DNA of 64,000 nt, taken from assembly GCA_029959665.1 (NCBI GenBank), contig JASCOI010000007.1:1-64000 (forward strand), read 5' to 3'. Position 1 is the first letter of the stretch. Each line of letters begins with the position of its first letter. The DNA is from Microbacteriaceae bacterium PS02333 (GTDB lineage: Bacteria; Actinomycetota; Actinomycetes; Actinomycetales; Microbacteriaceae). A model generated the notes under the pieces. The model had not been told where the DNA came from, made no database searches, and saw nothing but the letters and a program-made list of their open reading frames with translations. Made by a program: the position numbers and the translations under genes. Positions 5,517 through 62,731 of this stretch are shown piece by piece.

Positions 5517-5638
5517 CGGTCTCTTTCGGGTCGGGACGTGCTCGGCGACGGGACGCGCACCGGGCTCCGGTTGCGAGCTCGGGCGTCCTCCGCCGTCTCC
5601 GATACTGGCAGTTCGCCGCATGCCGATGGGGACATCGC

Positions 5639-5658
5639 GGTCCCCAATAGGGGGGACC
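5639..5658. promoter_or_regulatory. Palindrome GGTCCCC-N6-GGGGACC between divergent adhesin and VanZ genes
   Basis: Perfect 7-nt arms (5639-5645, 5652-5658) lie in the 198-bp region that separates the two start codons. A dyad here is placed to act as an operator for either gene. It is G/C-box-rich like the motif upstream of other surface genes in the window, but it is not the same sequence. The rest of 5517-5714 holds no gene that I can see. Confidence 0.4.
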
Positions 5659-5714
5659 CTCCCCGAACTGGTGTCACGCAGCGGACACGGTCCGGCACGG
5701 TAACGTCGGCCGAC

Positions 5715-8661: not shown

Positions 8662-8718
8662 GAGGCTCCCCTGAGAACGGTGGCTTCGCGAGGACGATGC
8701 GGGTCTGCCCGAAACTCC

Positions 8719-46200: not shown

Positions 46201-49200
46201 GGGCGCCCTGCTCGGACAGCGCGATCGCGGGTTCCGGCGCGATGGTCACGGCGGCCGAGTCGGTCGCGGTGACGGTCCCGCCGCCGGGTCCGGTGCCGGT
46301 CGCGGTCACACGGGAGGCCTGGCTCCCGGCATCGACGTCGGCCTGCGTGAGCGCGGTGGACGCCACAGCCCGTGCGGACTCCCCGGGTGCCAGCACCCCG
46401 GCGCGTCCCGGCCAGTCGACCGTGATGGTCGAGACCCCGGCACGGTCGTCGGCGAGGGTGACGCCGGAGAGCGTGGCGGTCCCGGTGTTCGTCACGACGT
46501 AGCCGAACTCGACGGTGTCGCCGGTGGCCCCGGTTGAGCCGTCCGCGAGGCGCGCGGTCTTCGTGACGTCGATGCGCTGCTCGGCGGAGCGGAGCACGAC
46601 GGTGGCGCTGTCGTCCTGCGCGCCGGGATCCGTCACGCCGTCGGGTGTGGCTGCCGTCGCCGTCGCGCGGTTGACCACGCTGCCCGCGTCGACGTCGGTC
46701 TGCGTGACGCTCGAGCGTGCCGTGGCGGTGACGGACTGTCCGGGCAGCAGGGTGCCGGCGGTGCCGTTCGGCCACGCGGACACCGTCGGGTCGGAGACAC
46801 CCGGAAGGGTGTCCGCGACGTCGACGTCGGTCAGCGTGACCGTGCCGGTGTTCGTGACGCGGTAGGTCCAGTCGATCCGGTCGCCGAGGACTCCCCGGGC
46901 GCCGTCGGCGAGCGCACCGCGCTTGTCGATCGTCCACGCACCGGTGCGGACCGTGTCGACCCCACCCGTCGCGGTGTCGCGCACGACGTCCCCGGCCGGG
47001 GTCGTCGCGGTCGCGGTCGCCGTGCTCTCGATCGAGCCGCGGTCGACGTCCGCCTGGGTCAGCACGTACGTCGCCGTGGCGGTGACGGACTGCCCTGGTG
47101 CGAGCTGTCCGGCGCGTTCCGGCCACGAGCCGAAGGTCACGGTGCCGAGCCGGGCCTGGTCGTCGTCGAGCGTGACGCCGTCGAGGGTCCGGTTGCCGGT
47201 GTTCGCGATCGTGAAGCGGAACGTGACGGTGTCGCCGGCCACACCCGTGCCGCTCGTCACCCGCTCGTCCTTGACCAGCGCGATGCCGTCGGTCGGGTCC
47301 GCGGTGCGCAGGGTGGTGCTGTCCGTGCCCGTGACGGGTGCCCCGGTCGGCGGGTTGCCGGTCGCGGTGGCGGCGTTCACGATGCTGCCCGCGTCGACGT
47401 CGGCCTGGGTGACCGTGTACTCCGCCGTCGCCGTCACGGTCTGCGACGGCGCGAGGGTGCCGGCGGTCCCCGGCCAGTCCGCGTCGATCGCGGACAGCCC
47501 GGCGAGGCGGTCCGACAGCGTCACACCGGAGAGCGTGACGGTGCCGGTGTTCGTCGCCGTGAGCGTGTAGCGGACGGTGTCGCCGACGCGGCCGAGGCCA
47601 CCGTCGGTGTACGCGGCGGACTTCGAGAACGCCAGCGCGGCGTCGGGGACGATCACGACGGTCGCGGCGTCCGTGGCGCGGGCACGGTCACCGGTCGGCG
47701 GGTTGCCGGTCGCGGTGACGGTGCTCGTCAGGGAGCCGCGGTCCACCTCGGCCTGCGTCAGCACGTGCGAGGCGGTCGCCGTCACGGTCTGTCCCGGGGC
47801 GAGGCGTCCGGCGGTACCCGGCCAGGTGCCGTAGGCGATCGTGGAGACGTCGTCCTGGTCGTCCGCCGCGGTCACCCCGGTGAGGGTGACGTTGCCGGAG
47901 TTCGTGATCGTGTACCGGTACTCGACCCGGTCACCGGCGGCGCCGGTGGCACCGTCCGCGAGGGTCGCCGACTTCACGACGCCGATCCGCGGGCCGGACG
48001 CGGCGGTCTGGACCGTCGCGGTGTCGGAGTCGTCCACGACGGAGCCGTCCGGCGCGGTGCCGGAGACGGTCGCGGAGTTCGTGACGGACCCGGCGTCGAC
48101 GTCGGACTGTGCGATCGTCGACGCCGCGGTCGCCGTGACGGTCTGCCCCGGTGCCAGGACACCGGTCGCGCCGGGCCAGGTGCCGACGGTCGGGTCGGAG
48201 ATCCCGGCGAGGTCGTCCGCGACGGAGACGCCCGTCAGCGTGACGTTGCCCGTGTTGGCGATGGTGAACGTCCAGCGGATGCCCTCGCCGGCGGCGCCGG
48301 TGGCGCCCGGCGCGAGCTGCCCCGCCTTGGTGACCCGGAGCCCCGGAGCCGCCTGCAGGTCGACGCCGGCGGTGTCGGTGGCGCGCACCGAGCCTCCCGT
48401 CGGGGCGGACCCGGTGGCGGTGGCGGCACTCGCGACGCGACCGGCGTCGATGTCCGACTGGGTGAGGGCGTAGGTCGTCGTCGCGGTGACGGACTCACCG
48501 GGGGCGAGGCGACCGGCCGCACCGGGCCAGGTGCCGTAGGCGACGGCGCCGACACCCTGCTGCTCGTCGGCGACCCGGACGCCGGTGAGCGTCTGGTTGC
48601 CGGTGTTCGTGATCGTGTAGCCGAGGCGCACGGTGTCGCCGACCGCCGGCGTCCCGGTGCCGGTGCGCTCCTCGGTCTTGGTGAGCGCGATCGCCGGAGC
48701 GCCGTCGGACGTGCGGATCGTGGCGCTGTCGGACGCGGTGACGTCGTCGCCGCGAGCCGGTGTCGCGGTGACCGTCGCACGGTTCACGACGGACCCGGCG
48801 TCGACGTCGGACTGGGTCACGGTGTACGTCGCCTTCGCGGTCAGCGTCTGCTCGGGGGCGAGCGTGCCGTCGCCGTTCGGACCGGCGGCGACCGTGACCG
48901 GGCCGAGGCCGGCGAGCTCGTCGGCGACGCGGCTCGCGGTCAGCGTGACCTGTCCGGTGTTCGTGATCGTGAACGTGTATCCCACGACGTCACCGACCCG
49001 GCCCGTGCCGCCACCGAGGTACTCGGCCCGCTTCTGGACCGAGACGTCCGCCGGGGCCGTCAGCGCGACGCTGCCACGGGCGGTGTCGGAGACGGTGGTG
49101 CCACGAGGGGCGGTTCCCGTCGTCTCGGCGGTGCTGGCGAGGGAACCGCGGTCGACGTCCGCCTGGGTCAGGGTGACCGTCGCGGTCGCAGTGACGGACT

Positions 49201-52200
49201 GCCCGGGTGCGAGGGTCCCGACCGCGGCCGGCCAGCTGCCGAACGCGATGTCGGACAGCCCGGGCTGTGCGTCGGTCAGCGTGACGCCGGACAGCGTCGC
49301 GGTGCCGGTGTTCGTGACCGTGAAGCCGAGCCGCACGGTGTCGCCCGCGACGCCGGCTGCCCCGTCGGCGAGTCGCTCGGTCTTGTCGATCCGGATCCCC
49401 GGCGCCGCTGCGGCGAGCGGCACGGTGGCTGCGTCGCTCGCGGTGACGGTGTCGCCTGCGGGCGTGGTGCCGGACGCGGTGGCGTCGTTCGCGACGCTCC
49501 CCGCGTCGACGTCGGCCTGGGTGACCCGGTACGTCGCGGTGCCGGTGACGACCTGTCCCGGTGCGAGTCGGCCGGTCGTGGACGGCCAGTCGGTGATCGT
49601 CACGGCGGACAGCCCGTTCAGGACGTCGTCGATGCCGACGCCCGTGAGCGTGACGTTGCCGGTGTTCACGACGCGGAAGCCGTACCGGACGGTGTCGCCG
49701 ACGGCACCGGTCGCCCCGGCGAGGGTCGCGGTCTTGTCGACGGTGAGCGACCCGCGCGGTGCGACGGTCGCGCTGCCGTCGTCGGAGTCGGACACGGCGG
49801 CACCTCGCGGCGGGGTGCCGGTCGTGATCGCGGTGCTCGAGACTGAGCCGCGGTCGACGTCGGCCTGCGTGAGCCGGTACGTGGCGTGGGCGACGACGGA
49901 CTGCCCGGGGGTGAGTCGGCCGGTCGTGGACGGCCAGGCGTCGAAGCGGACGCCGGAGACGCCCTGCTGCGAGTCGCTGACCCCGACGCCGGTGAGGGTC
50001 ACGTCGCCGGTGTTCGTGACCGTGAAGGTCATGTCGACGGTGTCGCCGGCCACCCCGGTGGCGCCGTCGGTCAGTCGTTCGTCCTTGACGATGCGGATGC
50101 CGGGTGCGCCGCTCGTGGTGACGACGGTCCGGGTGCCGCTGCCGGACACGCTGGTGCCTGCGGGCGTCGACGCGGTCGTCGTGGCCGTGTTCGCGATCGA
50201 CCCGGCGTCGACGTCGTCCTGCGTGACCGTGCGGTCCGCGGTGACGACGACGGCCTGCCCGGGTGCGAGCGTGCCGGCGGTGGCGTTCGGCCACGTGGTG
50301 GTCGGGGTGCCGAGCCCGGCGATCGGGTCGGCGACCGCGACGTCGGTGAGCGTGGTCTGGCCGGTGTTCGTCGCGGTCACGGTGTACCGGACGACGTCGC
50401 CGACCTGCACGGCGCGGATGTCGCCGCCGCCGAGCGTCGCGGCGGTCTTCCTGGTGGCGACCGAGCTCGTCGGGTCGAGCACGACCCGACCGTCGGACGT
50501 GGCGCTCACCGGCGCGCCGGTGCGGCGGTCGGTGGCGGTCGTCGTCGCGGCGCTCGAGAGCGACACGTGGCCGTCGGTGTCGGCTGCCGCGCGGTCGACG
50601 TCGGCCTGGGTGAGCCGGTAGGTCGCCGTCGCCCTGACGGACTGCCCCGGCGCGAGCGTGCCGGTGGTCCCGGACGGCCACGCGCCGAACGCGACACCGG
50701 ACAGGCCCTGCTGCTCGTCGGTCAGGCCGACCCCGGTCAGGGTCGTCTTTCCGGTGTTGGTGACGGTGTACCCGAACCGGACGACATCCCCGGCGACGCC
50801 GACGGACCCGTCGGTCAGCGCCTCGGTCTTGTCGAGCGTGATCGTCGGCGCCGGTGCGTCGGTCGCGGTGGTCGACGCTGCGGTCTTCGTGATCGCGGCA
50901 CCGGTCGGCGGGCTGGCGACCGCGTTCGCGGTGTTCACCACGCTGCCGGCGTCGACGTCCGCCTGGCTCACCGTGTACGCGGCGGTCGCCGTCGCCTGCT
51001 GCCCCGGGAGGACCGTCCCGGGCTTCGACGGGTCCGGCCAGGTGTACGACAGGACGCCGACGCCCTGCAGCTGGTCGGTCATCTGGAGCAGGTCGAGGGT
51101 CGTGTTGCCGGTGTTCGCGGCGGTCAGCGTGAAGCGGAGCTCGTCACCCGCGCCGGCACCGCTGCCCGTCGGGACACCCGTCTTGCTGAACGAGAACGTG
51201 TTCACCTGCGTGATCGGAACCGTGCGGTAGCTCGTCGCCGTGACCGCTGCGCCGCTCGCGGGCGTGCCCGTGGTGGTCGCGGGGCTCGAGACGTAGCCGG
51301 CGTCGATGTCCGCCTGGGTCAGGGTGTGCACGGCGGTCGCGGTGACGGTCTGGCCGGGGGTCAGGCGTCCGGCGGTACCCGAGGGCCAGGTCCCGACCGT
51401 GATGCCGTCGCTGTTCGCGCCGGTGTCGCGGATCGCCACGCCGGTCAGCGTGAAGTCACCGGTGTTCGTCACGGTGTACCCGAGGTCCACCGGGTCGCCG
51501 GGCTTCGGCGTACCCGCGCCCGGGACCGTCGCGGTCTTGACGATGCCGATCGCCGCCGTGTTGTCGGCGTCGGTCGCGATCGTGACGGTGGCATCGCCGG
51601 ACGTGCTGGTGCCCGTCGGCGTGGTGCCGCTGATGGTCGCGGCGTTCGTGATCGAGCCGGCGTCGACGTCGGCCTGGGTGACGGTGTACCGGGCGACGGC
51701 GCGGACGCGCTCCCCCGGTGCGAGCGACCCGGCGGAGCCGCCCGACCACTCGACGTTCGTCAGGGTCGGCGTGCCGGTGACCGGGGTCGCCGAGGCGAGG
51801 CCGACGAGCTGGTCGCGGAGCGCGATGCCGTCGAGCGTGACCGAGCCGGTGTTCGTCGCGAGGAACGAGAAGACGACGGTGTCGCCGACCTTCCCGCTCT
51901 GCACGGCCCCGTTCGACCCGACGTCGTAGCGCGCGGTCTTCGTCAGGGACACCGCCGGGGTCGGGGTGATCGTGACCCCGGCACTCGCGGTCGCGGTGAC
52001 CCGGGTGCCCGCGGGGGTCGTGCCGAACGCCGTCGCGACGGAGCTGATCCCGCCGGCGTCGACGTCGGACTGGCTCAGCGTGTAGCTGGCCGTGGCGGTG
52101 GCGCTCCGGCCGGGAGCGAGCGTGATCGTGGTGTCGCCGTCGGCGAAGACGATGCTCGAGATGCCACGCTGGGCGTCCTGCACGCCGACGATGGTCAGCG

Positions 52201-55200
52201 TGACGTTGCCCGAGTTCGTGATGCGGTAGCGCATGTCGACCTGGTCGCCGGCGACGGCTGCGCGGGTGGTCGAGCCGTTTGCGGCGAAGGTCTCGGCCTT
52301 CGTGACGGTCAGACCGGGGGCGGCGTCGTTCGTCGTCACGGTGGCCGACGCCGTCGCGGTGACGGTCGCGGGGTCGACGCCCGTGGGGGCGGTCCCGGTG
52401 ACGGACGACGAGTCGACGAGGGATCCGGCGTCGACGTCGTCCTGCGTGATGGTGGAGGTGGTGGTCGCGGTGACGGACTGTCCGGGGGCGAGCGTGTTCG
52501 GCGCGTTCGGCCAGGCGTAGGTCACGGTGCCGCCGAGCGCGTGCACGATCTCCGGCACGGACAGGGTCACGGTGCCGGTGTTCGTCGCGCGGTACGTCCA
52601 TGTCACGACGGACCCCACGCCGCCGGTGCCGCTCGTGACGGTGCCGCTCTCGGTGAGGGCGACCGCGGGCGAGCGGTTCGTCGCGACCGAGCCGGTGTCG
52701 GTGTCCCGCACGGTCGTCCCGCCCGGCGAGACGCCCGTCGTCGTCGCGGTGCTCGAGATCGTTCCCGCATCGACGTCCGCCTGGGTCAGGGCGTAGGTCG
52801 CCGTGACGGTGACCGACTGCCCGGGGGCGAGCCGTCCGGCGGTGCCGGAGGGCCATGCGCCGTAGGTGAACGCGGAGATCCCGGACTGCGCGTCGGTGAG
52901 GGTGACGTTCGACAGGGTCTGGTTGCCGGAGTTCGTGATCGTGTAACCGAGCCGCACGGTGTCACCCGCGACACCGGTGGCGGTCGTGCCGAGCCGCTCG
53001 GTCTTCGCGAGGTTGATCGCGGGCGCACCACCGGCCGGCGTCACGGTCGTGGAACCGGTGCCGCGCACGGCGGAGCCGCCCGGCGTCGTGCCCGTCGTGG
53101 TCGCGGTGTTGACGATGCTGCCGGCGTCGATGTCCGCCTGGGTGATCGTGTACGTCGCGGTGCCACGGACGGTCTGCCCCGGCGCGAGCGTGCCGGAGGT
53201 ACCGGAGGGCCACGTGCCGTACGAGATCGCCGACAGCCCGGACAGCGGGTCGGTGACGCCGACGCCGGTCAGGGTCGTGGTGCCGGTGTTCGACACGTCG
53301 AAGCGGTACGTCACGGTGTCACCGGCCCGGCCGGTCCCGCCGACGACGGCGCTCTTCGCGACCGCGATGCCGGGCGCCGCGGTGATCGCCGCCGATGCCG
53401 ATGCCGGAGTCGTCACGGCGGTGCCGGAGGGCGTCGTCGCCGAGGCCGTCGCCCGGTTCGCGACGGTGCCCGCGTCGACGTCGGCCTGCGTCAGCGTGTA
53501 CGACGCGGTCGCGGTGGCCGACTGACCAGGAGCGAGGCGACCCGAGGTCCCCGGCCACGTGTAGGTCATCGCGCCGAGCCCGGCGTGCGGGTCGGTGATC
53601 GCGACGTTCGTGAGCGTCTGGTTGCCCGAGTTCGTCACCCGGAACGTGTAGACGAGGGTGTCGCCGGCCTTGCCTGTGTACCCGGTGCCCGTCGCCACGC
53701 TCTTCGTGAAGCCGAGCGCCGGTGAACCCGCGAGCGGGATCGTTCCGGAGCCCTGCGCCGTCGCCGTCGTCGTGCCCGACGGGCCGGACCCGGTCGCGGT
53801 CGCGGTGTTCGTCACCGAGCCGGCGTCGATGTCCGCCTGGGTCACGGTGCCGGACGCCGTCGCGGTCGCGGACTGCCCCGGTGCGAGGGTCCCGGCGGTC
53901 CCCGGCCAGGTGTAGGTCAACGAGGAGAGCCCGGCGAGCGAGTCCGTCGCGGCGACGGACGTCAGCGTCGTGTTGCCGGTGTTCGTGATGCGGAGCGTCC
54001 AGTCGGCGCGGTCGCCGGCGGTCCCCGTCGAGCCCGCTGCGAGCGAGCCGGTCTTCGTGACGGTGATCGACGCCGTGCGGTCGATCGACACGCTGGCCGC
54101 GGTGGCCTGGGACACGACGGTGTTCGACGGGGTCGTGCCGCCGATCGTCGCGGTGTTCCGGACGGTGCCCGCGTCGACCTGCGCCTGCGTCAGCGTCGAG
54201 GTGGCGGTCGCGGTGACGGTCTGCCCCGGTGCGAGTCGCCCGGTGGCCCCCGGCCAGGAGTACGTGATGGCGGAGAGCCCCGCGAGCTGGTCGGTGATGG
54301 TGACACCGGTGAGGGTCACGTTGCCGGTGTTCCGCGCGGTGAAGGTCCAGCGCACGGTCGACCCGGCCGCAGCACCCGACGGCGCCGTGCCCGTCTTCGT
54401 GAAGGACAGCGCGCCGGACGCCGGTACGACGAGGGTCGAGGGGGACGACGCGGTGACGGCCGTGCCCGCGGGCGAACGACCCGACGACTGCGCGGTGTTC
54501 ACGACGCTGCCCGCGTCGACGTCCGCCTGGGTCAGCGTGTACGTCGCGGTCGCGGTGACGGTCTGCCCCGGTGCGAGGGTCCCCGCGGTGCCGGACGGCC
54601 ACGTGCCGTACGCGATCGTGGAGACGCCGGCGAGCGCGTCGGACACGGTCACGCCGGTCAGCGTCTGGTTGCCGGTGTTCCGCGCCGTGAACGTGTAGTC
54701 CACGGTGTCACCGGCCTTGCCCGTCGCACCGGCGGCGAGCGCCCCGGTCTTCGCGACGGCGATCCCGGGAGCCGCCGGCACCGTGGTGCGCGCTGATGCG
54801 GAGTTGGTCGCGGTGCTGCCGTCGGGAGCGGTCCCGGTCGCGGTGGCCGTGTTCGTGACGACCCCGGCGTCGACGTCCTTCTGGGTCAGCTTGTACGTCG
54901 CCGTCGCGGTGGCGGACTGACCAGGGGTCAGGCGGCCGGAGGAGCCCGGCCACGAGTACGTCAGCGAGGACAGGCCGGCCAGCGGGTCGCTCACGGTGAC
55001 CCCGGTGAGGGTCTGGTTGCCCGAGTTCCGGACGGTGAACGTGTAGTTCACGGTGTCCCCGACCGCACCCGTCGAGCCCGAGGCGAGCGCCCCGGACTTC
55101 GCGATGGCGATGCCGGGTGCACGGGTCACGGAGACCGCGGCGGAGCCCGTCGACGACGCCGGCTGGCCGGTGCCGTCGGCGCGGGTGTTCCCGGAGGCCG

Positions 55201-58200
55201 TCGCAGTGTTCACGACGCTGCCGGCGTCGACGTCCGCCTGGGTGAGCTTGTACGTGGCCGTCGCGGTCACCGTCTGGTTCGGGGCGAGCTGGCCGCTTGT
55301 CCCCGGCCACGTGTACGTCAGCGCCGAGATGCCGGAGAGCCCGTCCGCGATCGCGACCCCGTACAGCGTGGTGTTGCCGGTGTTCGTCGCACTGAACTGC
55401 CAGTTCACGGTGTCGCCGACCCCGCCTGTCGCCCCGGAGGCGAGCGAACCGGTCTTCGTGACGGCGATCTTCTGCGCCGCGGCCACGTTGACCGTCTTCG
55501 TGGTCTGGCCGCTCGTCACGGCCGTGCCCGACGGGTTCGTGCCGTTCGCGGTCGCGGTGTTCGTGATCGACCCGGCGTCCACCTGCGCCTGCGTCAGCGT
55601 CGACGTGGCGGTCGCGGTGACGGACTGCCCCGGTGCGAGCTTGCCGGTGGTCCCGGACGCCCAGGTGCCGTAGGAGATCGCGGACAGCCCGGACAGCGGG
55701 TCGGCGATCGCGACACCGGTGAGGGTGCGGTTGCCGCCGTTGGTCACCCGGAACGTCCAGTTCACGGTGTCCCCGGCACGTCCGGTCGCGCCGGACGCCA
55801 GGCTCCCGTCCTTGACGATGGTCAGACTGGAGGCATCGGTCACCCGGACCGTCGCCGTCGCGTCGGTCGCGGTGACGGTCCCACCGGAGGCGGCCGTCGC
55901 GGACGCACCGGCGGTGTTCACGACGCTGCCGGCGTCGACGTCGGTCTGCGTGAGCGCGTACGTCGCGGTCCCGGTCACGGACTGCCCGGGGGCGAGCGTG
56001 CCGCTCGTGCCGGACGGCCAGGTGCCGAACGTGATCGCGGACACTCCCGCGAGCCGGTCGGTGATGCTCGCGGACGTGACGGTCTGGTTGCCCGAGTTGG
56101 TCAGCGTGAACGACCAGGTCACGCCGTCGCCGGCCTTGCCGGTCGAGCCGGCGGCGATCGCACCGGTCTTGGCGAGCGTCAGCACGTTCGCGGCGGGGAT
56201 CGCGACGGTCGCCGTCGCGGTCGGTGCGGTGACGGCGCTCCCGGTGGCGCTGCGTCCGGAGGCGGTGGCCGTGTTCGTCAACGAACCGGCATCGACCTGC
56301 GCCTGGGTCAGCGTCGAGGTCGCGGTGGCCGTGACGGACTGACCCGGCCCGAGCCTCCCGGCCGTGCCCTGCGGCCACGTGCCGTACGCGACGGACGAGA
56401 CGCCGGCGAGCTGGTCGGTGATCGTCGCACCGGTGATCGTCTGGGCACCGGAGTTCGTCAGTCGGAACGACCAGTTCACGGTGTCGCCGGCCTTGCCGGT
56501 CGCACCGGATGCCAGCGCACCGGACTTCGTCAGGGTGAGCGCGTTCGCGGCGCCGAGCGGCTGCGTGCGCGACGCGGTCGCGGTGGGCTTGGGGCCGCCG
56601 TCCGGGTCGGTGCCCGTGACCGTGGCGGTGTTCGTGACGGTGCCGGCGTCGACGTCGTTCTGCGTGAGCGTGTACGTGCCGGTGGCCGTGACGGACTGCC
56701 CGGCGGCGAGCGTCCCCGCAGTCCCGGACGGCCAGGAGCCGTAGGTCAGCGCGGAGAGCCCGGCGAGCGGGTCCGTGATCGCGACGCCGGACAGCGGGCC
56801 GGTACCGGTGTTCGTCGCGGTGAAGGTGTAGTTCACGGTGTCGCCGGCCTTGCCGGTCGCACCGTTCGCCAGGGCGGACGTCTTCGTCAAGCCGAGGGCG
56901 GAGAGGTACGTGTTCGTGGAGGCGGTGTCGGTCACGGACACCGTGGTGTCGCTCGCGACCTGGCCGGTCGCGGTCACCGAGCTGGTGGTCGACGCGGCCG
57001 TGGGCGGCGGACCGGTGCACTGGACCGTGGCCGTCGCGCCCGATGCCAACGGTCCGGCGATGGTGGACGACGGCGTGCACGTCTCGGTGTCGGGGAACGT
57101 CAGGCGGATGTTCGACAGGGCGACCGACCCGTTGTTCGTCACCGTGATCGTGTAGGCCGTGTTCTCCGAGGCGATGCGGTACTGGTCGTTGGTCGAGCCG
57201 TCGAGGGTCTTCGACACGCTCAGCGCCGCCGTCGGCACCGACAGCACGGCGTTCTGCAGGAGGTAGGAGTCACCGCTCGTCCCGACCGTCAGGGTCATCG
57301 ACGTGTCGCCCTTGTTGACGCCGGAGAGCGTCTGGGTGTGCACGTCGACGCTCTGGTTCGTGAACGCGCTGGTGTCGCTCGTCTGCGTGTACCTCGCCGA
57401 GCCGTCGGCCTGCCCGACCCCGATGTTGCCGCTCGCGCCCTTGGTGTTCAGGACCTCGGTCGCGGTGCCGCCCTGCGGGGTGTACCGCATGTAGTCGCCG
57501 GTGATGCCGCGGTCGCCCTCGTAGAGCGTGTACCCGAACTTCACGCCGGACTGCAGCGCCGAGAAGCCCGTGAAGTTCACGGTCAGGGGGCTGTCAGACG
57601 CGGCCTCGCGCACGTGGCCCTGGTAGTAGATGACCTTGTGCGGGGCGCTCGCGGCGTTGCCGGGGATGTACTTGCCGTAGTCGTACACGACCGTCAGGGA
57701 CCAGCCCGCGTAGCAGCCGGCGCCGACGGCGGCCCAGATGTTCCCGGCGCTGACGTTCAGCGCGGAGCCCGTCGTCGCGTTCGCGAAGGCGCTCGTCACG
57801 TCGGCGCTCGCCGAGTAGTACAGTGCGCTCGCCTGGCTCGTCGGGTCCTCGAGGAGGGCGTCGGGCGCCACCGTCCGGATCGCACCCGTGCCGACCTTGA
57901 GCTGCACGCCCTGCGTCCGGTACCCGTTCGCCGCGTCCGGTCGCGTGGCGTACCACTGCGACCCGTTCGCGGAGTTCCCCGAGCAGGTCACGTTGCCGGA
58001 GCCGGTGAACACGCCCGTGTTCGCGCTCCAGTCGAGGTACGCCTTCGTCACGGTGGCACCGGACGGGATCGTCACGCTGCCGGTCGACGAGTTCGTGGTG
58101 AACCCGGACACCGTGTTCGAGTTCACCATCTTGAAGTAGTCGTTGTACGACGTCGTGACGCCCGTGCCCGGGTTGTTCGCGTGCAGGTCGGTGCAGCTGC

Positions 58201-58474
58201 CGCTCGTGGTCGTCGCGGTGAGCGCGGTGCCCGAGCACGCCAGGACGCCATTGCCCGTCATGGTGAAGTCGCCGTTGACGGTCGCCTGGTAGTTCGGGGA
58301 CTGGTCGGCCCCGCTCCCCCACTGCACCACGGCCGCCTGCGCCACCCCGGTCGTGCCCAGGGCGACGCCGGTGGTCGGGATGAGCACGGCGAGGGCCAAC
58401 GCGATCCCGCGGAACCACCGGGGACGCGCGACGGATTCCGACCGATGCCGAGGGGAACGGGGCGCGAGCAGCAC
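43283..58474 (-). CDS. Giant LAFTG-anchored surface protein with 38 DUF11/DUF7507-like repeats
   Basis: A 5063-residue surface protein, the largest gene here. GTG 58474 (VLLAPRSP) is the start, with GGAAGG 8 bp upstream. A signal peptide ends near AQAA (~50). Residues ~50-430 form a unique head domain (YNDYFKMVNSNTVSGF, DWSANTGVFTGSG). One divergent unit follows. Then 38 canonical units of ~118 residues carry TKTGxLAxGATGxAGDTVxxTFTVTNTG, LTGVxVxDPLAGL, WPxGTAGxLAPGQSVTATATYxLTQADVDAGSVxNTA. The C-terminus has LAFTGADP, a helix and RRRSRKEHR. At ~4.5 nm per Ig-like unit (a family estimate) the stalk could reach ~170 nm. It probably acts in long-range adhesion. It is coupled to the lipoprotein downstream. 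Confidence 0.93.
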   Translation of the reverse strand: MLLAPRSPRHRSESVARPRWFRGIALALAVLIPTTGVALGTTGVAQAAVVQWGSGADQSPNYQATVNGDFTMTGNGVLACSGTALTATTTSGSCTDLHANNPGTGVTTSYNDYFKMVNSNTVSGFTTNSSTGSVTIPSGATVTKAYLDWSANTGVFTGSGNVTCSGNSANGSQWYATRPDAANGYRTQGVQLKVGTGAIRTVAPDALLEDPTSQASALYYSASADVTSAFANATTGSALNVSAGNIWAAVGAGCYAGWSLTVVYDYGKYIPGNAASAPHKVIYYQGHVREAASDSPLTVNFTGFSALQSGVKFGYTLYEGDRGITGDYMRYTPQGGTATEVLNTKGASGNIGVGQADGSARYTQTSDTSAFTNQSVDVHTQTLSGVNKGDTSMTLTVGTSGDSYLLQNAVLSVPTAALSVSKTLDGSTNDQYRIASENTAYTITVTNNGSVALSNIRLTFPDTETCTPSSTIAGPLASGATATVQCTGPPPTAASTTSSVTATGQVASDTTVSVTDTASTNTYLSALGLTKTSALANGATGKAGDTVNYTFTATNTGTGPLSGVAITDPLAGLSALTYGSWPSGTAGTLAAGQSVTATGTYTLTQNDVDAGTVTNTATVTGTDPDGGPKPTATASRTQPLGAANALTLTKSGALASGATGKAGDTVNWSFRLTNSGAQTITGATITDQLAGVSSVAYGTWPQGTAGRLGPGQSVTATATSTLTQAQVDAGSLTNTATASGRSATGSAVTAPTATATVAIPAANVLTLAKTGAIAAGSTGKAGDGVTWSFTLTNSGNQTVTSASITDRLAGVSAITFGTWPSGTSGTLAPGQSVTGTATYALTQTDVDAGSVVNTAGASATAASGGTVTATDATATVRVTDASSLTIVKDGSLASGATGRAGDTVNWTFRVTNGGNRTLTGVAIADPLSGLSAISYGTWASGTTGKLAPGQSVTATATSTLTQAQVDAGSITNTATANGTNPSGTAVTSGQTTKTVNVAAAQKIAVTKTGSLASGATGGVGDTVNWQFSATNTGNTTLYGVAIADGLSGISALTYTWPGTSGQLAPNQTVTATATYKLTQADVDAGSVVNTATASGNTRADGTGQPASSTGSAAVSVTRAPGIAIAKSGALASGSTGAVGDTVNYTFTVRNSGNQTLTGVTVSDPLAGLSSLTYSWPGSSGRLTPGQSATATATYKLTQKDVDAGVVTNTATATGTAPDGSTATNSASARTTVPAAPGIAVAKTGALAAGATGKAGDTVDYTFTARNTGNQTLTGVTVSDALAGVSTIAYGTWPSGTAGTLAPGQTVTATATYTLTQADVDAGSVVNTAQSSGRSPAGTAVTASSPSTLVVPASGALSFTKTGTAPSGAAAGSTVRWTFTARNTGNVTLTGVTITDQLAGLSAITYSWPGATGRLAPGQTVTATATSTLTQAQVDAGTVRNTATIGGTTPSNTVVSQATAASVSIDRTASITVTKTGSLAAGSTGTAGDRADWTLRITNTGNTTLTSVAATDSLAGLSSLTYTWPGTAGTLAPGQSATATASGTVTQADIDAGSVTNTATATGSGPSGTTTATAQGSGTIPLAGSPALGFTKSVATGTGYTGKAGDTLVYTFRVTNSGNQTLTNVAITDPHAGLGAMTYTWPGTSGRLAPGQSATATASYTLTQADVDAGTVANRATASATTPSGTAVTTPASASAAITAAPGIAVAKSAVVGGTGRAGDTVTYRFDVSNTGTTTLTGVGVTDPLSGLSAISYGTWPSGTSGTLAPGQTVRGTATYTITQADIDAGSIVNTATTTGTTPGGSAVRGTGSTTVTPAGGAPAINLAKTERLGTTATGVAGDTVRLGYTITNSGNQTLSNVTLTDAQSGISAFTYGAWPSGTAGRLAPGQSVTVTATYALTQADVDAGTISSTATTTGVSPGGTTVRDTDTGSVATNRSPAVALTESGTVTSGTGGVGSVVTWTYRATNTGTVTLSVPEIVHALGGTVTYAWPNAPNTLAPGQSVTATTTSTITQDDVDAGSLVDSSSVTGTAPTGVDPATVTATASATVTTNDAAPGLTVTKAETFAANGSTTRAAVAGDQVDMRYRITNSGNVTLTIVGVQDAQRGISSIVFADGDTTITLAPGRSATATASYTLSQSDVDAGGISSVATAFGTTPAGTRVTATASAGVTITPTPAVSLTKTARYDVGSNGAVQSGKVGDTVVFSFLATNTGSVTLDGIALRDQLVGLASATPVTGTPTLTNVEWSGGSAGSLAPGERVRAVARYTVTQADVDAGSITNAATISGTTPTGTSTSGDATVTIATDADNTAAIGIVKTATVPGAGTPKPGDPVDLGYTVTNTGDFTLTGVAIRDTGANSDGITVGTWPSGTAGRLTPGQTVTATAVHTLTQADIDAGYVSSPATTTGTPASGAAVTATSYRTVPITQVNTFSFSKTGVPTGSGAGAGDELRFTLTAANTGNTTLDLLQMTDQLQGVGVLSYTWPDPSKPGTVLPGQQATATAAYTVSQADVDAGSVVNTANAVASPPTGAAITKTAASTTATDAPAPTITLDKTEALTDGSVGVAGDVVRFGYTVTNTGKTTLTGVGLTDEQQGLSGVAFGAWPSGTTGTLAPGQSVRATATYRLTQADVDRAAADTDGHVSLSSAATTTATDRRTGAPVSATSDGRVVLDPTSSVATRKTAATLGGGDIRAVQVGDVVRYTVTATNTGQTTLTDVAVADPIAGLGTPTTTWPNATAGTLAPGQAVVVTADRTVTQDDVDAGSIANTATTTASTPAGTSVSGSGTRTVVTTSGAPGIRIVKDERLTDGATGVAGDTVDMTFTVTNTGDVTLTGVGVSDSQQGVSGVRFDAWPSTTGRLTPGQSVVAHATYRLTQADVDRGSVSSTAITTGTPPRGAAVSDSDDGSATVAPRGSLTVDKTATLAGATGAVGDTVRYGFRVVNTGNVTLTGVGIDDVLNGLSAVTITDWPSTTGRLAPGQVVTGTATYRVTQADVDAGSVANDATASGTTPAGDTVTASDAATVPLAAAAPGIRIDKTERLADGAAGVAGDTVRLGFTVTNTGTATLSGVTLTDAQPGLSDIAFGSWPAAVGTLAPGQSVTATATVTLTQADVDRGSLASTAETTGTAPRGTTVSDTARGSVALTAPADVSVQKRAEYLGGGTGRVGDVVGYTFTITNTGQVTLTASRVADELAGLGPVTVAAGPNGDGTLAPEQTLTAKATYTVTQSDVDAGSVVNRATVTATPARGDDVTASDSATIRTSDGAPAIALTKTEERTGTGTPAVGDTVRLGYTITNTGNQTLTGVRVADEQQGVGAVAYGTWPGAAGRLAPGESVTATTTYALTQSDIDAGRVASAATATGSAPTGGSVRATDTAGVDLQAAPGLRVTKAGQLAPGATGAAGEGIRWTFTIANTGNVTLTGVSVADDLAGISDPTVGTWPGATGVLAPGQTVTATAASTIAQSDVDAGSVTNSATVSGTAPDGSVVDDSDTATVQTAASGPRIGVVKSATLADGATGAAGDRVEYRYTITNSGNVTLTGVTAADDQDDVSTIAYGTWPGTAGRLAPGQTVTATASHVLTQAEVDRGSLTSTVTATGNPPTGDRARATDAATVVIVPDAALAFSKSAAYTDGGLGRVGDTVRYTLTATNTGTVTLSGVTLSDRLAGLSAIDADWPGTAGTLAPSQTVTATAEYTVTQADVDAGSIVNAATATGNPPTGAPVTGTDSTTLRTADPTDGIALVKDERVTSGTGVAGDTVTFRFTIANTGNRTLDGVTLDDDQARLGTVTFGSWPERAGQLAPGQSVTATATYVLTQADVDRGSIESTATATATTPAGDVVRDTATGGVDTVRTGAWTIDKRGALADGARGVLGDRIDWTYRVTNTGTVTLTDVDVADTLPGVSDPTVSAWPNGTAGTLLPGQSVTATARSSVTQTDVDAGSVVNRATATAATPDGVTDPGAQDDSATVVLRSAEQRIDVTKTARLADGSTGATGDTVEFGYVVTNTGTATLSGVTLADDRAGVSTITVDWPGRAGVLAPGESARAVASTALTQADVDAGSQASRVTATGTGPGGGTVTATDSAAVTIAPEPAIALSEQGALAPGATGAVGDTVQWTFTVTNTGTVTLDQAALRAQLGEVAFGPWPGADGVLAPGQVATATATSTITQADFDRGSVANPATVTATAPDGQTATADASATVATGPADARIGITKTAALPDGDTAPRAGDVVTFTYRVTNTGTSTLDGVAVTDAQDGVGTVSYEWPGAAGVLAPGQTVTATATVALTQQDVDRGSLGSTATATGTPPTGPSVDATADATVVLPGSPSLDVTKSGVLRDGATGSVGDTVDYTVTLRNSGTTTLHDVAATDPLPGLGALRFADSFDGTLAPGAAATATAAYTVTQDDVDAGSVVNTATATANPPTGAPVTASGSATVGLAAAAAGITIDKTQQLADGAAGRAGDRVTYTFTVTNSGSATLSGVTVADGQQGLGAVSVQWPGAPGVLRPGQSATGTATYTLTQADVDRGRIASTATTSGTSAAGATVRASDDGATTISGTPGLSVVKSGTLAGNGSAGSTVRWTIDVRNSGAVTLTDVTVTDDLAGFTTTGTTWPGGAGVLAPGQTVRVSGTSVLTQADVDAGGVVNTARATGTAPDGTSASAGGSATVPTPSATPGITIVKTAQLAPGATGVAGDTVRFHYVVTNGGDQTLYGVSVRDAQAGVSAITYQWPGTSGVLTPGQSVTADATYVLTQADVDAGLVTSPATATGYAPDGVPVNDSSNAGISLPTAPHLTLVKTGTLSDGDSGAVGDTVDYTFRVTNDGNATLTGVRLDDPMAGLSGVTWTWPGTPGRLDIGQTATGTARYTVAQDDVDAGTVVNTATASGTGPTGTVVVSAPSGATVPVGDAGAVGDLTITKTVQYAEGTDGTVGQQLQYGFTLVNTGTVTLHDVHVDDRLPGLGTVVYGQWPGTPGVLEPGERVTATATYTVGQSDGAAGTVVNSATAIGTPPPGAVPGDAPVVSAPDSVRITTRPAAGVPALAFTGADPAPALAAAALMVLLGLALAVVGNRRRSRKEHR
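43450..56920 (-). repeat. 38 tandem ~355-bp coding repeats with late A/B alternation
   Basis: Counted from the translation by the xTQxDVDxG landmark. Units 2-12 are nearly all one type (DPLAGL core, VDAGSVxNT end). From about unit 13 to 38, odd and even units tend to alternate. Odd units carry DxQxG(V/L) and mostly end VDRGSxxST or similar. Even units keep D(x)LxGL and VDAGSVxN. This implies growth of the array by duplication of two-unit blocks. Boundaries are approximate. Confidence 0.8.
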
Positions 58475-59374: not shown

Positions 59375-60811
59375 TCAGGACGTCTCGAGGCGGGAGCGGA
59401 TCCGCGCAACGGCAGCACCGAGCGACGCGACGGCCACCGCTCCGAACAACACGCCGCTGAGTCCGAGGTGGAGCAGGTCGAGCCGTGATCCTGCCCACAC
59501 GACGAGCGTCTCGCACACGATGGCCAGGACGGAGGTCACCGCCACGGACGCAGGGACCTCCGCGTTCGCCGGGGCGACGCATCCGGCGGCGTAGGCCACA
59601 CCCGCCGCGGCGACGAGGGCGAGGGAGTGCTGCACGACGACCGACGGCTCGGGGACGGTCCCGATCACACCGAACCCCGTGCATGTGAGGAGCACTGCCC
59701 ACACCATCCCCGCCGCGACCTGTGGGAGCACGATGCGGACTGCGGGCGTCCGGTGCTGCCGGTAGACCCACGACAAGGTCGCCACCCGACCCCACGACAG
59801 TTCGAGCGGCGCTGCCGCGAGCATCGCGCACGTCATGAGCGCCGCGGAGAGCGGCATCACACCGTTGCGGGCGGCCACACTCACGAGGACGACCGTGACC
59901 ACCGAGACCGCGAGCGACACCTGGCCGATGGGCTGCCGGACGACCATCGCGATCTCACGCGTGAGCCAAGCACCGCCTCGGGGCAGACATCGGCGCAACG
60001 TGACGAGGCGGTGGGGATGCCCGAGTGGCTCCAACCGCTGCGCGCAGCGGACGGCGAGCAGGGTGACGAGCAGGACGGCGGTGGAGAGCACCGCGGCGGA
60101 CAGGGCGACGACCGAACCATCGACACCCTGGTGCACCGTGACGATCTCCGACCAGGTCGCCGCCGCCGGAGTCCTCCCCGCTCGCGCAGCGGCTGTGGAG
60201 TCGGAGACCACCATCCCGACGACCGTCACCGCGCCGAGGACCGCGATGAGCTGGACGACGGTCGAACTGAGCCGAACCGCGGTGCCGACGAGGCGGAGGC
60301 CCTCCGCGAGGATCGCGATCCCGAGCGCCGACGCGACGTTCGTTGCGAGCAGCGTGCACGCGGTGAACGGACCGCCGTCGACGATCGACCCGAGGTACAC
60401 CGACGGACCGATGGTCAACACCCCGGACGCCGTCGTGATGAGCACCACGAAGGGGATGGACTCGCCCAGTCGGGCAGGGACACGACGTGCTGAGAGCACC
60501 TGGGCCGAGACCCGCACCGCGGAGTTGCCGGGCGCCAGGATCAGCACCAGGACCGCGATCCCTCCGGCGCTCGCCACCTGCGCTGCCGCGAGGGCGTCGA
60601 CCAGCTGCGCGGCGTCGATGTGCGACGCCTCGACGGCGTCGGCCGGGAGGAACCGCGCGAGGAAGTCGTACGCCACGACGTTGTAGAGCACGACGGCGGT
60701 TCCGACGACTGCCCCGATGACCGTCGCGACCGCTCGACCGCCGACCGCTTGTTCGATGTGCCGGACGAGAACCAGACCGGTCGTGCGGGCGATCGCGAAG
60801 GTGGGTGTCAC
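59375..60811 (-). CDS. ABC transporter permease of a peptide operon
   Basis: A 478-residue polytopic protein with about 12 hydrophobic segments and a short central charged loop (RCAQRLEPLGHPHRLVTLRRCLP). It has no recognised signature by eye, but it begins with GTG overlapping the stop of the ABC ATPase (GTGA), so it is the natural membrane partner. The large size and even helix spacing resemble permeases of peptide or bacteriocin exporters in actinobacteria. It is the last gene of the five-gene operon that starts at 62645. Confidence 0.75.
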   Translation of the reverse strand: MTPTFAIARTTGLVLVRHIEQAVGGRAVATVIGAVVGTAVVLYNVVAYDFLARFLPADAVEASHIDAAQLVDALAAAQVASAGGIAVLVLILAPGNSAVRVSAQVLSARRVPARLGESIPFVVLITTASGVLTIGPSVYLGSIVDGGPFTACTLLATNVASALGIAILAEGLRLVGTAVRLSSTVVQLIAVLGAVTVVGMVVSDSTAAARAGRTPAAATWSEIVTVHQGVDGSVVALSAAVLSTAVLLVTLLAVRCAQRLEPLGHPHRLVTLRRCLPRGGAWLTREIAMVVRQPIGQVSLAVSVVTVVLVSVAARNGVMPLSAALMTCAMLAAAPLELSWGRVATLSWVYRQHRTPAVRIVLPQVAAGMVWAVLLTCTGFGVIGTVPEPSVVVQHSLALVAAAGVAYAAGCVAPANAEVPASVAVTSVLAIVCETLVVWAGSRLDLLHLGLSGVLFGAVAVASLGAAVARIRSRLETS

Positions 60812-61572
60812 CGACGCGACCGTTCAGCGCGCGCCAGCGCACCGACGAACAGCGCACTGGAGCGCGCGACGGATTCGCCGATCCCGGTCGTCGCGAGGAA
60901 GACGTCCTCGATCGAGCGTCCTTCCTCCGCGAGCTCGCGCACACCGTCGTCGACGATGAGGCGCCCCTCCTGGAGGACCAGGAAGCGCGTGGCGGTCGTC
61001 TGTGCAGACGGCAGGTCGTGCGTCGAGAGCAGGACGGCGCCTCCGTGCTCGGCGAAGTCGTGGATCAGCGCGCGCAGCAACGCTCCGGACTCGGGGTCGA
61101 GACCGCGGAGCGGCTCGTCGAGGATGAGGATGCTCGGACCACGGAGCAGGGCCGCGAGGAGCTGGAGCTTCCGCTTCATCCCGTGGCTGAACGTGGACAG
61201 CAGTCGACCAGCCGCGTCGTCGAGCCGCAGGCACTCGAGCAGCCGCTGCCGATGTCGGTCCCCGACCCGAGATCCGTGCAACGCCTCGGCGAAGTCGAGG
61301 TACTCGTGGCCGGTCAGGAGTTCGGGGAGCGGGAGGTCGTCCGGGCAGAACCCGATGCCGGTGTAGCCGCCCGCTCTGATCCGGACCCCGTCTGCGAGGA
61401 CCTCGCCCGAGGTCGGCTTCGTGAGACCGGTGATGACGTGGATGAGCGTGCTCTTCCCGGCTCCGTTCGGACCGACGAGCGCGACGACCTCGCCCGGCTC
61501 GATGGCGAAGGAGACATCGGCCAGCACCGCACTGGTCCCGTAGGACTTGGACACGGCTCGGACTTCAAGCAT
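60808..61572 (-). CDS. ABC transporter ATP-binding protein
   Basis: A 254-residue ATPase with all motifs intact: Walker A GPNGAGKST (~35-43), Q-loop region GIGFCPDDL (Q replaced by D/P type), the signature as FSHGMKRKLQLL, Walker B LILDEPLRGLD and the H-loop STHD. The SHGMK signature is typical of the ABC-2 drug/peptide exporter group. It overlaps the M50 protease gene by 8 bp and the permease by 4 bp. It probably drives export of, or immunity to, the 84-residue peptide. Confidence 0.92.
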   Translation of the reverse strand: MLEVRAVSKSYGTSAVLADVSFAIEPGEVVALVGPNGAGKSTLIHVITGLTKPTSGEVLADGVRIRAGGYTGIGFCPDDLPLPELLTGHEYLDFAEALHGSRVGDRHRQRLLECLRLDDAAGRLLSTFSHGMKRKLQLLAALLRGPSILILDEPLRGLDPESGALLRALIHDFAEHGGAVLLSTHDLPSAQTTATRFLVLQEGRLIVDDGVRELAEEGRSIEDVFLATTGIGESVARSSALFVGALARAERSRR

Positions 61573-62077
61573 CAGGGTCTCCTTGGATCGCGCGACGGAC
61601 CTGGCTGCCGTCTGCGGCATGACGAGTCAGGCTGAGGAGGTGGACGGAGAACAGCGCGACGACGGGGTACGCGAGGATGAGAGGGATCGGGAGCACGAGG
61701 ACGAGGAGCCCTGAGGCCATCGCCGCGAAGGGGCCGGCGATCGCCACGGCGCCGTCGGCGTGGGTGCCGAGACTCCACCGGACGACGCTCCCGGACGCCC
61801 ACGCCCCGCGTCCCGCGACGATCGCCCGGGCGGGATCGGCGAAGAACACGTGCGCAACCGCGTGGCCGAGTTCGTGGATGAAGGACGACAGCACGAACAG
61901 CGCGAGCGCGACGATCATCGGTCCGAGGACTGCGGGGCCGAAGGCGAGGACTCCGACGGCGCAGATCGCGGCGCCGGGCACGACGACGACGCACAGGACG
62001 ACGAGCGTCACTCGCCACGACGCTCGGCCGGCGGCGATGATCGCCGCCGGCCAAGCTCCGCGCCTGCGACGCGTCAC
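61565..62077 (-). CDS. M50-family intramembrane metalloprotease
   Basis: A 170-residue protein with about four to five membrane helices. The zinc motif HELGH is in the second or third (SFIHELGHAVAHVFF, ~65), and a late SLTRHAADGSQV supplies the DG-type third ligand of site-2 proteases. The length suits compact M50B enzymes. The start is GTG 62077 (VTRRRRGAW), overlapping the next upstream gene by 4 bp. By position it could cleave the 84-residue membrane peptide, as YydH is thought to do in the yyd epipeptide operon of Bacillus. No radical-SAM gene is present. Confidence 0.85.
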   Translation of the reverse strand: MTRRRRGAWPAAIIAAGRASWRVTLVVLCVVVVPGAAICAVGVLAFGPAVLGPMIVALALFVLSSFIHELGHAVAHVFFADPARAIVAGRGAWASGSVVRWSLGTHADGAVAIAGPFAAMASGLLVLVLPIPLILAYPVVALFSVHLLSLTRHAADGSQVRRAIQGDPDA

Positions 62078-62382
62078 CCTCGGGATGCGACCGCTCGGGT
62101 ACCCGCCGCCGATCGACGCGAGATGAGCCAGGCGAGCACGGCACCGACGAGCGTGAGACCGACCGGGACGATCAAGAGGCCGGGACCGCCGACCGCGGTC
62201 GCAGACCCCTCGACGGTCGAAGCACGGACGATGGGCCCGATGTCCACGGCACCGTCCCCACTGAGCACGGACGCGAACGCCCACAGCCACAGCCCGCCGT
62301 CGATGACGATTCCCGAGAGCAGCCCCAGCAGCCCTCCGAGGAACGTGCCGAACAGTGTGCGCTGCGTGGTCATGAGAGCCAT
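62074..62382 (-). CDS. Small two-helix membrane protein, possible immunity factor
   Basis: A 102-residue protein with two hydrophobic segments (~10-40 and ~72-92). They are split by a polar loop (SGDGAVDIGPIVRASTVEGS), and the tail is basic. It is not recognised. The start may be ATG 62382 or 62373 (MALM). It lies 8 bp after the peptide gene and overlaps the M50 gene by 4 bp. Small membrane proteins in this place in bacteriocin operons are often immunity proteins, but it could also be a second peptide substrate. Confidence 0.65.
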   Translation of the reverse strand: MALMTTQRTLFGTFLGGLLGLLSGIVIDGGLWLWAFASVLSGDGAVDIGPIVRASTVEGSATAVGGPGLLIVPVGLTLVGAVLAWLISRRSAAGTRAVASRG

Positions 62383-62390
62383 TCCGCCGC

Positions 62391-62645
62391 TCACTTCAGC
62401 TTGTGGCAGGTGACCTTCACGGTCCAGTCGGACAGGCTCACGACGGAGTCGAGGACCCCACCGTTCGCCGCGCAGAGGGCGACGGCGCCGATCACGATCG
62501 TCGCGCCGAGCGCGAGCAGGACGACGATCGCCACGACGAGGGTAATCGGGATCACGCCGTTCGATCGGACAGCGGGGTGAGCGGAACGCCATGCGTTGAT
62601 CAGTGAGACCTGAGCTGCGTATGCGGACGGCGACAATGCGGTCAT
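62391..62645 (-). CDS. Small hydrophobic peptide with two cysteines, candidate bacteriocin/signal precursor
   Basis: An 84-residue peptide. Residues 1-30 are polar with an amphipathic helix (AYAAQVSLINAWRS), residues 31-58 are one strongly hydrophobic helix, and residues 59-84 are a tail ending TVKVTCHKLK. Cys58 and Cys80 could pair. It has the strongest ribosome site in the window (GAAGGGGG, 7 bp before ATG) and a near-consensus promoter. It leads an operon with a small membrane protein, an M50 protease and an ABC transporter. I know no family for it. A secreted antimicrobial or signalling peptide is the favoured reading; a membrane regulator is an alternative. Confidence 0.7.
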   Translation of the reverse strand: MTALSPSAYAAQVSLINAWRSAHPAVRSNGVIPITLVVAIVVLLALGATIVIGAVALCAANGGVLDSVVSLSDWTVKVTCHKLK

Positions 62646-62676
62646 TCGAAGACCCCCTTCTTGGTCGATGTGTGAA

Positions 62677-62705
62677 ATCCTGGCGTTCTACACACAACGT
62701 GTCAA
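62677..62705 (-). promoter_or_regulatory. Near-consensus promoter of the peptide operon
   Basis: On the minus strand a perfect -35 TTGACA (62705-62700), a 17-bp spacer and a -10-like CAGGAT (62682-62677) lie about 30 bp before the start codon. An inverted pair TGTGTG/CACACA (62669-62674, 62691-62696) brackets the -10 and could be an operator. No other gene in the window has such a strong promoter. Confidence 0.75.
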
Positions 62706-62711
62706 GGAGTT

Positions 62712-62727
62712 TCGATCGATCGATCGA
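62712..62727. promoter_or_regulatory. 16-bp perfect palindrome TCGATCGATCGATCGA upstream of the peptide promoter
   Basis: Repeated TCGA units form a full dyad 7 bp upstream of the -35 box and 5 bp after the TetR stop codon. It is a candidate binding site for the adjacent TetR regulator, though simple-repeat origin is possible. Confidence 0.4.
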
Positions 62728-62731
62728 GGGA

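What the first reader, a model, noticed from the sequence alone, without database searches (positions are those of the whole stretch)
59375..62645. Compact operon of a two-cysteine hydrophobic peptide, M50 protease and ABC exporter
Seen: five overlapping or nearly abutting genes led by an 84-residue peptide with one membrane helix and Cys58/Cys80, then a two-helix protein, an HELGH protease, an ABC ATPase and a large permease. Known: the Bacillus yydFGHIJ epipeptide operon combines a peptide, a radical-SAM enzyme, an M50 protease and an ABC pair. Here no radical-SAM or lanthipeptide enzyme is visible. Inferred: a new peptide antimicrobial or signal made by intramembrane cleavage without obvious modification.
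Basis: partly seen in the sequence, partly recalled or inferred. Interest (0 to 1): 0.85.

Follow-up and report, generated by a model that had tools for sequence, protein, structure and literature searches.

The report
Helix-anchored bacteriocin cassette in Curtobacterium
Five adjacent genes look like a complete factory for a small antibacterial peptide that keeps a membrane-spanning helix; it fits TMcin, a peptide class first described in 2025, in a divergent version.

Summary
In detail: five tightly packed minus-strand genes (62645 to 59375) encode an 84-aa two-cysteine helix peptide, a two-helix protein, an HELGH site-2-type protease, an ABC ATPase and a 12-helix permease. The unit is real: the same five genes recur in three more Curtobacterium genomes and two other Microbacteriaceae genera (type I); a reordered, diverged set (type II) occurs in six Curtobacterium genomes. 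The closest known system is not the YydF epipeptide but TMcin (Nat Commun 2025; bioRxiv 2026): pore-forming bacteriocins made from a membrane-inserted precursor by these same parts (TmcA, E, P, B, C). Gene content, paired cysteines, predicted helix plus hairpin, site-2-protease fold and the gene order of a Roseburia cluster agree. Sequence similarity to Bacillota clusters is clear only for the ATPase and weak for the protease. Type I lacks the helix-flanking tryptophans and no DsbA gene lies in the cassette, so I file it as a new variant of a known kind. New here: two gene orders in one genus, insertion into a defined site, and two genomes that kept only the two-helix (TmcE-like) gene at that site, which hints at an immunity role. 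No activity was tested.

The parts
62391..62645 (-). TmcA-like precursor peptide, 84 aa; helix about 31-60, Cys58 and Cys80, predicted beta hairpin 63-82; mature part perhaps from residue 34 (inferred)
62074..62373 (-). TmcE-like two-helix protein, 99 aa
61565..62077 (-). TmcP-like site-2-type protease, 170 aa, GTG start; HELGH (H68, E69, H72) and distal D156-G157 invariant in seven relatives
60808..61572 (-). TmcB-like ABC ATPase, 254 aa
59375..60811 (-). TmcC-like permease, 478 aa, GTG start, 12 hydrophobic segments
62646..62731 (-). Intergenic region with promoter-like TTGACA-N17-CAGGAT and ribosome-binding site before the peptide gene; read by eye, the -10 is weak and the consensus scan found no promoter

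Best explanation
The operon is a TMcin-type bacteriocin gene cluster. The peptide is made with a short cytoplasmic leader and inserts as a single helix, N-terminus in (inferred). The two-helix protein accompanies it, the site-2-type protease cuts off the leader at the cytoplasmic end of the helix, perhaps near residue 33/34 (inferred by setting Cys58 equal to TMcin Cys25). Cys58 and Cys80 form a disulfide that pins a two-stranded loop to the helix; with no oxidase gene in the cassette, a host enzyme or air would have to do this. The ABC pair pulls the helix-containing peptide of about 51 residues out of the membrane and releases it. By analogy with TMcin it inserts into neighbouring Gram-positive cells and assembles into a beta-barrel pore. 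Shown here: gene set, conservation, motifs, predicted folds. Inferred from published TMcin work: cleavage, disulfide, export, killing.
For: Same five components as the TMcin core operon. Exactly two cysteines in 11 of 11 intact relatives; they align with the cysteines of two Bacillota TMcin-like peptides. Peptide model: helix then two strands, as described for TMcin. Protease: catalytic H68 and D156 (TmcP: H68, D158), top Foldseek hit 3b4r, profile match to 3b4r at E 9.4e-7. A Roseburia cluster has the order peptide, two-helix protein, metalloprotease, and its protease aligns over HExxH and the distal DG. The window ATPase's first-ranked plasmid hit lies in a Peribacillus cluster with a W-helix-W-C...C-K peptide. 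Variable leader and conserved core. Co-occurrence of the five genes in every intact copy examined.
Against: Profile comparisons with the Bacillota clusters gave nothing usable for permease and two-helix protein and only weak values for the peptides. The window protease does not match PF11667, the Pfam family of TmcP. Type I peptides lack the tryptophans that flank the TMcin helix. Peptide model confidence is only moderate (pLDDT 68), and VIA-align does not separate site-2 proteases from unrelated helical proteins. No activity data.
Confidence: 0.82

Rival explanations
1. A peptide signal (pheromone): the protease releases a peptide that is exported and sensed by neighbours, without killing.
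For: Site-2 proteases make peptide pheromones elsewhere (family knowledge, not from a call); the peptide core is strongly conserved.
Against: No receptor or regulator travels with the cassette: the upstream TetR gene sits beside trmH in 26 of 30 loci examined, none of these with protease, ATPase or permease. The predicted product is a whole membrane helix plus hairpin, not a short soluble peptide.
Confidence: 0.07
2. An internal regulatory system: the protease cuts a membrane-bound regulator in response to stress, and the ABC pair is a stress exporter.
For: Many site-2 proteases act in regulated intramembrane proteolysis (family knowledge).
Against: The peptide has no DNA-binding or sigma-binding domain (no family match). 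The genes are accessory: type I in 4 and type II in 6 of 66 genus genomes.
Confidence: 0.05
3. An unrelated bacteriocin system that has converged on the TMcin layout.
For: Weak or absent profile similarity to Bacillota peptides, two-helix protein and permease.
Against: Shared gene order peptide, two-helix protein, protease with Roseburia, aligned cysteines, an ATPase related at 38% identity and E 6e-43 to that of a Peribacillus cluster, aligned protease motifs.
Confidence: 0.06

Closest known systems
TMcin biosynthetic gene clusters (tmcA, B, C, P, E; model TMcin-G1905; PMC12328743, PMC13252029)
   Same: Helix-containing precursor with two conserved cysteines, site-2-clan protease with HExxH and distal Asp, ABC ATPase plus 12-helix permease, two-helix protein; same order of peptide, two-helix protein and protease as in a Roseburia TMcin-like cluster.
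   Different: No DsbA-like tmcD and no helix-turn-helix regulator in the cassette; type I lacks the helix-flanking tryptophans; 21 or 23 residues between the cysteines instead of 24; protease outside PF11667; inferred leader 33-42 instead of 45 residues.
Bacillus subtilis YydF/EpeX epipeptide operon
   Same: Peptide, M50-type protease and ABC pair in one operon.
   Different: YydF is modified by a radical-SAM epimerase and has a 17-residue product; no such enzyme among the five window proteins, and the window peptide carries a membrane helix and two cysteines.
Circular bacteriocin clusters with an M50 gene (group 6 in PMC8659200, group 10 in PMC8534725)
   Same: Hydrophobic peptide, M50 gene and transporter genes together.
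   Different: A SpoIIM (DUF95) gene is typical there; none of the five window proteins matches it in Pfam.

Membership tests
TMcin | Core operon of TmcA, TmcB, TmcC, TmcP and TmcE | tested here: met
   All five kinds of protein are adjacent in the window and in the relatives examined; definition.
TMcin | Two universally conserved cysteines in the precursor | tested here: met
   Exactly two cysteines in 11 of 11 intact relatives; aligned with two Bacillota peptides.
TMcin | Disulfide bond between them | not testable with these tools
   Needs chemistry; no oxidase gene in the cassette.
TMcin | One transmembrane helix followed by a two-stranded beta loop | tested here: met
   AlphaFold2: helix 31-60, strands 63-72 and 75-82, but pLDDT only 65-68 over the strands. 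Alternation of polar and non-polar residues before the second Cys exceeded 97.5% or more of permutations in each of 11 related peptides (chosen after the fact).
TMcin | TmcP is a site-2-clan protease with HExxH and distal Asp | tested here: met
   H68, E69, H72, D156 invariant in seven relatives; 3b4r top Foldseek hit and profile match. VIA-align Z 5.8-6.6 is not decisive.
TMcin | TmcP falls in Pfam PF11667 (reported for the staphylococcal protein; not shown to be defining) | tested here: inconclusive
   Window protease: no match; type II protease E 0.33. The Roseburia protease also stays under the cut-off (22.9 of 27.1 bits, E 1.2e-4).
TMcin | Two highly (not universally) conserved tryptophans flanking the helix | tested here: not met
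   Type I has none beside the helix; type II has WW only on the C-terminal side. Both Bacillota peptides have them.
TMcin | Detectable TmcA sequence homology | tested here: inconclusive
   hhalign probability 11-15% against the Peribacillus peptide.
TMcin | Secreted, pore-forming antibacterial product | not testable with these tools
   No wet-lab data.
Epipeptide (YydF) | Radical-SAM epimerase modifying the peptide | tested here: not met
   No such match among the five proteins.
Circular bacteriocin | SpoIIM (DUF95) membrane protein gene | tested here: not met
   No such match among the five proteins.

The most novel reading that the evidence does not exclude
The two-helix TmcE-like protein is the self-immunity factor as well as the escort, and strains that lost the peptide keep it as protection against TMcin-producing neighbours. 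Two Curtobacterium genomes (G062, G058) carry an open tmcE-like gene at the cassette site but no protease match in the genome and no ABC pair at the site. By its own statement the TMcin preprint did not investigate self-immunity, so these orphans would be natural test cases.
Probability: 0.35. Interest if true: 0.62.

Novelty: new variant of a known kind. Interest (0 to 1): 0.5.

Why it matters
TMcins are a recent bacteriocin class; the two papers seen study one member, from Staphylococcus. A divergent, compact five-gene version in Curtobacterium and two further Microbacteriaceae genera gives a minimal unit without DsbA or regulator, two gene orders, and natural loss variants that make the open question of self-immunity testable. 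Heat-stable bacteriocins of Curtobacterium flaccumfaciens ('flaccumfacin', Gross and Vidaver 1979, as cited in PMC11206981, passages seen) are reported; whether such cassettes explain them is an open, checkable idea with no evidence here. Standard tools miss the cluster: four of the five proteins have no Pfam or NCBIfam match above cut-off.

Tried and rejected
Searches that led nowhere: protease query in genome contigs (no locus). Peptide in plasmids and phages, protease and permease in plasmids, peptide profiles in viral contigs: no match. Peptide profile in 396 genomes of the order: only the window's own. Peptide profile in 396 genomes of the phylum: one other match, G976 at E 9e-4, whose 3.1-kb surroundings show no cassette gene (read by eye). 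Type II peptide in 299 genomes of the family: only G009. These searches score a limited number of candidates per genome, so diverged peptides can be missed. PDB search with the peptide model: two chance-level hits; with its profile: one, E 0.51. PADLOC matched only the ATPase. PHROGs gave weak unknown-function matches, the best E 0.006 to the two-helix protein.

Ideas rejected: YydF-type epipeptide (no radical-SAM gene); circular bacteriocin (no SpoIIM gene); the TetR gene as part of the unit (it sits beside trmH without the cassette). I first read the two-helix protein as plain immunity; the preprint shows that TmcE is needed for cleavage, so escort is now the main role and immunity an added possibility.

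Matches not examined and counted neither way: seven genomes with only weak peptide matches (E 0.012-0.098), ten weak matches (E 6.5e-4 to 8.4e-3), four genomes with only weak protease matches and a second one in G009, weak two-helix matches (E 0.001-0.007) in G016, G001, G045, G023, G033 and a second place in G000, six protease matches in other families (E 3e-8 to 2e-7).

Papers: PMC13252029: outline, whole-text parts 1-2 of 5, section 22, figure legends and tables, passages. PMC12328743: outline, sections 7 and 9, passages. PMC7026026, PMC8659200, PMC8534725, PMC10885120 and PMC11206981: passages only. Supplements could not be read. What I say about print rests on the searches.
Full report
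OBSERVATION. The last three junctions overlap; peptide stop and next start are 17 bases apart. Upstream lies a TetR gene on the same strand, downstream a TrmH-type RNA methyltransferase (named from its sequence by eye).

IT IS A UNIT. In 66 genomes of the genus the peptide has strong matches in four (G000, G051, G008, G032) and a truncated one in G062; seven more genomes have only weak matches, not examined. A single-sequence protease search found the same four plus a weak match in G055. G051, G008 and G032 carry all five genes in the same order. In 398 genomes of the family a peptide profile gave 15 matches at E 0.01 or better: three in the genus (G000, G032, and truncated G062), two in other genera (G371, G213), ten weak ones not examined. 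G371 and G213 also have the complete cassette. A protease profile then found a diverged type II cassette in six genus genomes: G055, G009, G026, G027, and second copies in G051 and G008. Its order is peptide, ATPase, two-helix protein, permease, protease. Its five intact peptides end in CQNKGMYPA[ML]DMPS[FW][SN]AGGTWKxYC[RK]K. In G008 the type II protease frame is split; in G027 the type II peptide gene lacks its helix part. So 8 of 66 genus genomes hold at least one cassette (G027's with a broken peptide gene), G051 and G008 hold both types, and G062 and G058 hold remnants.

TYPE I AGAINST TYPE II. The permeases are related (hhalign probability 94%); the ATPases are 43% identical (window against G055). 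The proteases align with HExxH and the distal DG invariant. Two-helix proteins (45%) and peptides (20%) give only weak profile support, so their equivalence rests on position and architecture.

SELECTION. Window against G051 and G008, dN/dS is 0.13-0.18 for the peptide, 0.19-0.22 for the ATPase and 0.36-0.53 for the other three (own Nei-Gojobori script). For G051-G008 the ATPase is lower than the peptide (0.21 against 0.29), and against the more distant G032 the peptide is at 0.50-0.59, no longer distinct. Changes concentrate in the leader: residues 1-27 pN 0.27 against core 0.042 for window-G051; the leader pN is higher than the core pN in all 20 pairs of the two types. A variable leader and conserved core fit a processed product. 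All 11 intact peptides fit C-x3-G-x(17-19)-C-[HKR]-[KR] (the motif was drawn from these same peptides).

MOBILITY AND LOSS. TrmH is in 66 of 66 genus genomes; of the 30 loci fetched (1.5 kb on each side), 26 show the TetR gene beside it, none of these 26 with protease, ATPase or permease. The window cassette is therefore an insertion between TetR and TrmH. G051 has its cassette between the same HAD-type gene and trmH, yet cassette dS (0.78-0.95) exceeds trmH dS (0.42). G032 has TetR next to trmH and carries its cassette elsewhere. Window cassette genes have lower third-position G+C (0.82-0.88) than both neighbours (0.93-0.94), although 26 other ORFs picked in the window average 0.87, so this is weak; the four type II genes measured in G009 are far lower than their neighbours (0.48-0.79 against 0.94-0.96). 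In G062 the peptide core and the three downstream genes are gone from the site, but the two-helix gene is open and 85% identical. In G058 only a two-helix gene of 34-37% identity stands there. Neither genome has a protease match at E 0.01; their ABC genes were not searched genome-wide. Profiles of the two-helix protein find no further strong orphan: six strong type I places (four in cassettes, two orphans) and six type II places, all in cassettes. Against an immunity reading: in G062 the gene's dN/dS towards the window is 0.59 on a small dS of 0.14, within the 0.36-0.63 of intact cassettes, while the neighbours are at 0.11-0.19, so simple decay is possible.

WHAT IT IS. None of the five proteins except the ATPase passes a Pfam or NCBIfam cut-off. 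The protease model (pLDDT 85) has the mjS2P structure 3b4r as top Foldseek hit (probability 1.00, E 0.037); its profile finds 3b4r at E 9.4e-7 and SpoIVFB at 0.0056. VIA-align gives Z 5.8-6.6 to three site-2 proteases, no better than unrelated helical designs, so the structural match is supportive, not decisive. The peptide model (pLDDT 68) is a helix 31-60 followed by strands 63-72 and 75-82; the PDB search gave only chance-level hits.

COMPARISON WITH PRINT. A search for site-2 protease with bacteriocin listed the TMcin preprint. TMcin precursors are membrane-inserted peptides with one helix and two conserved cysteines; TmcP, a site-2-clan protease whose model matches 3b4r, removes the leader; TmcBC exports; two-helix TmcE is needed for cleavage; DsbA-like TmcD forms the disulfide; the product makes beta-barrel pores. 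The window has the same five core genes. The 2025 paper reports the family in Bacillota and Actinomycetota with three gene arrangements and does not name Curtobacterium or Microbacteriaceae in its main text; its tree and supplements could not be read, so I cannot say that these loci are unlisted there.

DIRECT TEST AGAINST BACILLOTA CLUSTERS. The window ATPase's first-ranked hit among the 5000 plasmid records kept (38% identity, E 6e-43) lies in a Peribacillus muralis cluster with a 70-aa W-helix-W-C...C-K peptide and a 489-aa permease; no protease or two-helix gene was seen among its annotated genes and plus-strand ORFs. That peptide led to a Roseburia plasmid with the order peptide, two-helix protein, metalloprotease, thioredoxin/CcdA-like protein (named from sequence by eye), with helix-turn-helix genes upstream. 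The two cysteines align with the window's in an alignment of 9 peptides. The Roseburia protease aligns with the window family over HExxH and the distal DG (probability 50%). The Peribacillus permease, the Roseburia two-helix protein and the Peribacillus peptide gave no usable similarity. Calling these two clusters TMcin-like rests on the published description, not on a comparison with the Staphylococcus reference sequence.

VERDICT. The working model is a TMcin-type pore-forming bacteriocin cluster, a divergent Microbacteriaceae variant. Cleavage, disulfide, export and killing are inferred. The most useful new element is the pair of orphan two-helix genes, which makes an immunity role for TmcE testable.

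Noticed in passing
window 43283-58474, minus strand: A 5063-aa ORF (GTG start) of many similar repeats with an N-terminal signal-like stretch and a C-terminal LAFTGADP...membrane...RRRSRKEHR end, like a giant cell-wall-anchored surface protein.
   Followed up: no
L049 (G062) 900-1560 and L057 (G058) 950-1560: The TetR-TrmH gap keeps an open two-helix (tmcE-like) gene without the rest of the cassette, in two genomes.
   Followed up: partly
L050 (G048) 2100-2700 and L052 (G029) 640-1560: The same TetR-TrmH gap holds other, unrelated membrane-protein ORFs, so the site may be an insertion hot spot.
   Followed up: no
L095 (G027) 8544-8669; L097 (G008) 5247-5755: In type II cassettes, one peptide gene has an internal in-frame deletion of the helix part and one protease gene is split between two frames.
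   Followed up: partly
L099 3538-3981 and L009 10483-11217: A thioredoxin-like gene with a CARC motif lies about 1 kb from the type II cassette in G009 and G055; a possible disulfide source, or just a neighbour of the insertion site.
   Followed up: no
L129 5938-8609 (Roseburia plasmid) and L127 5695-8185 (Peribacillus plasmid): Two TMcin-like clusters on plasmids of Bacillota, annotated mostly as hypothetical proteins.
   Followed up: partly
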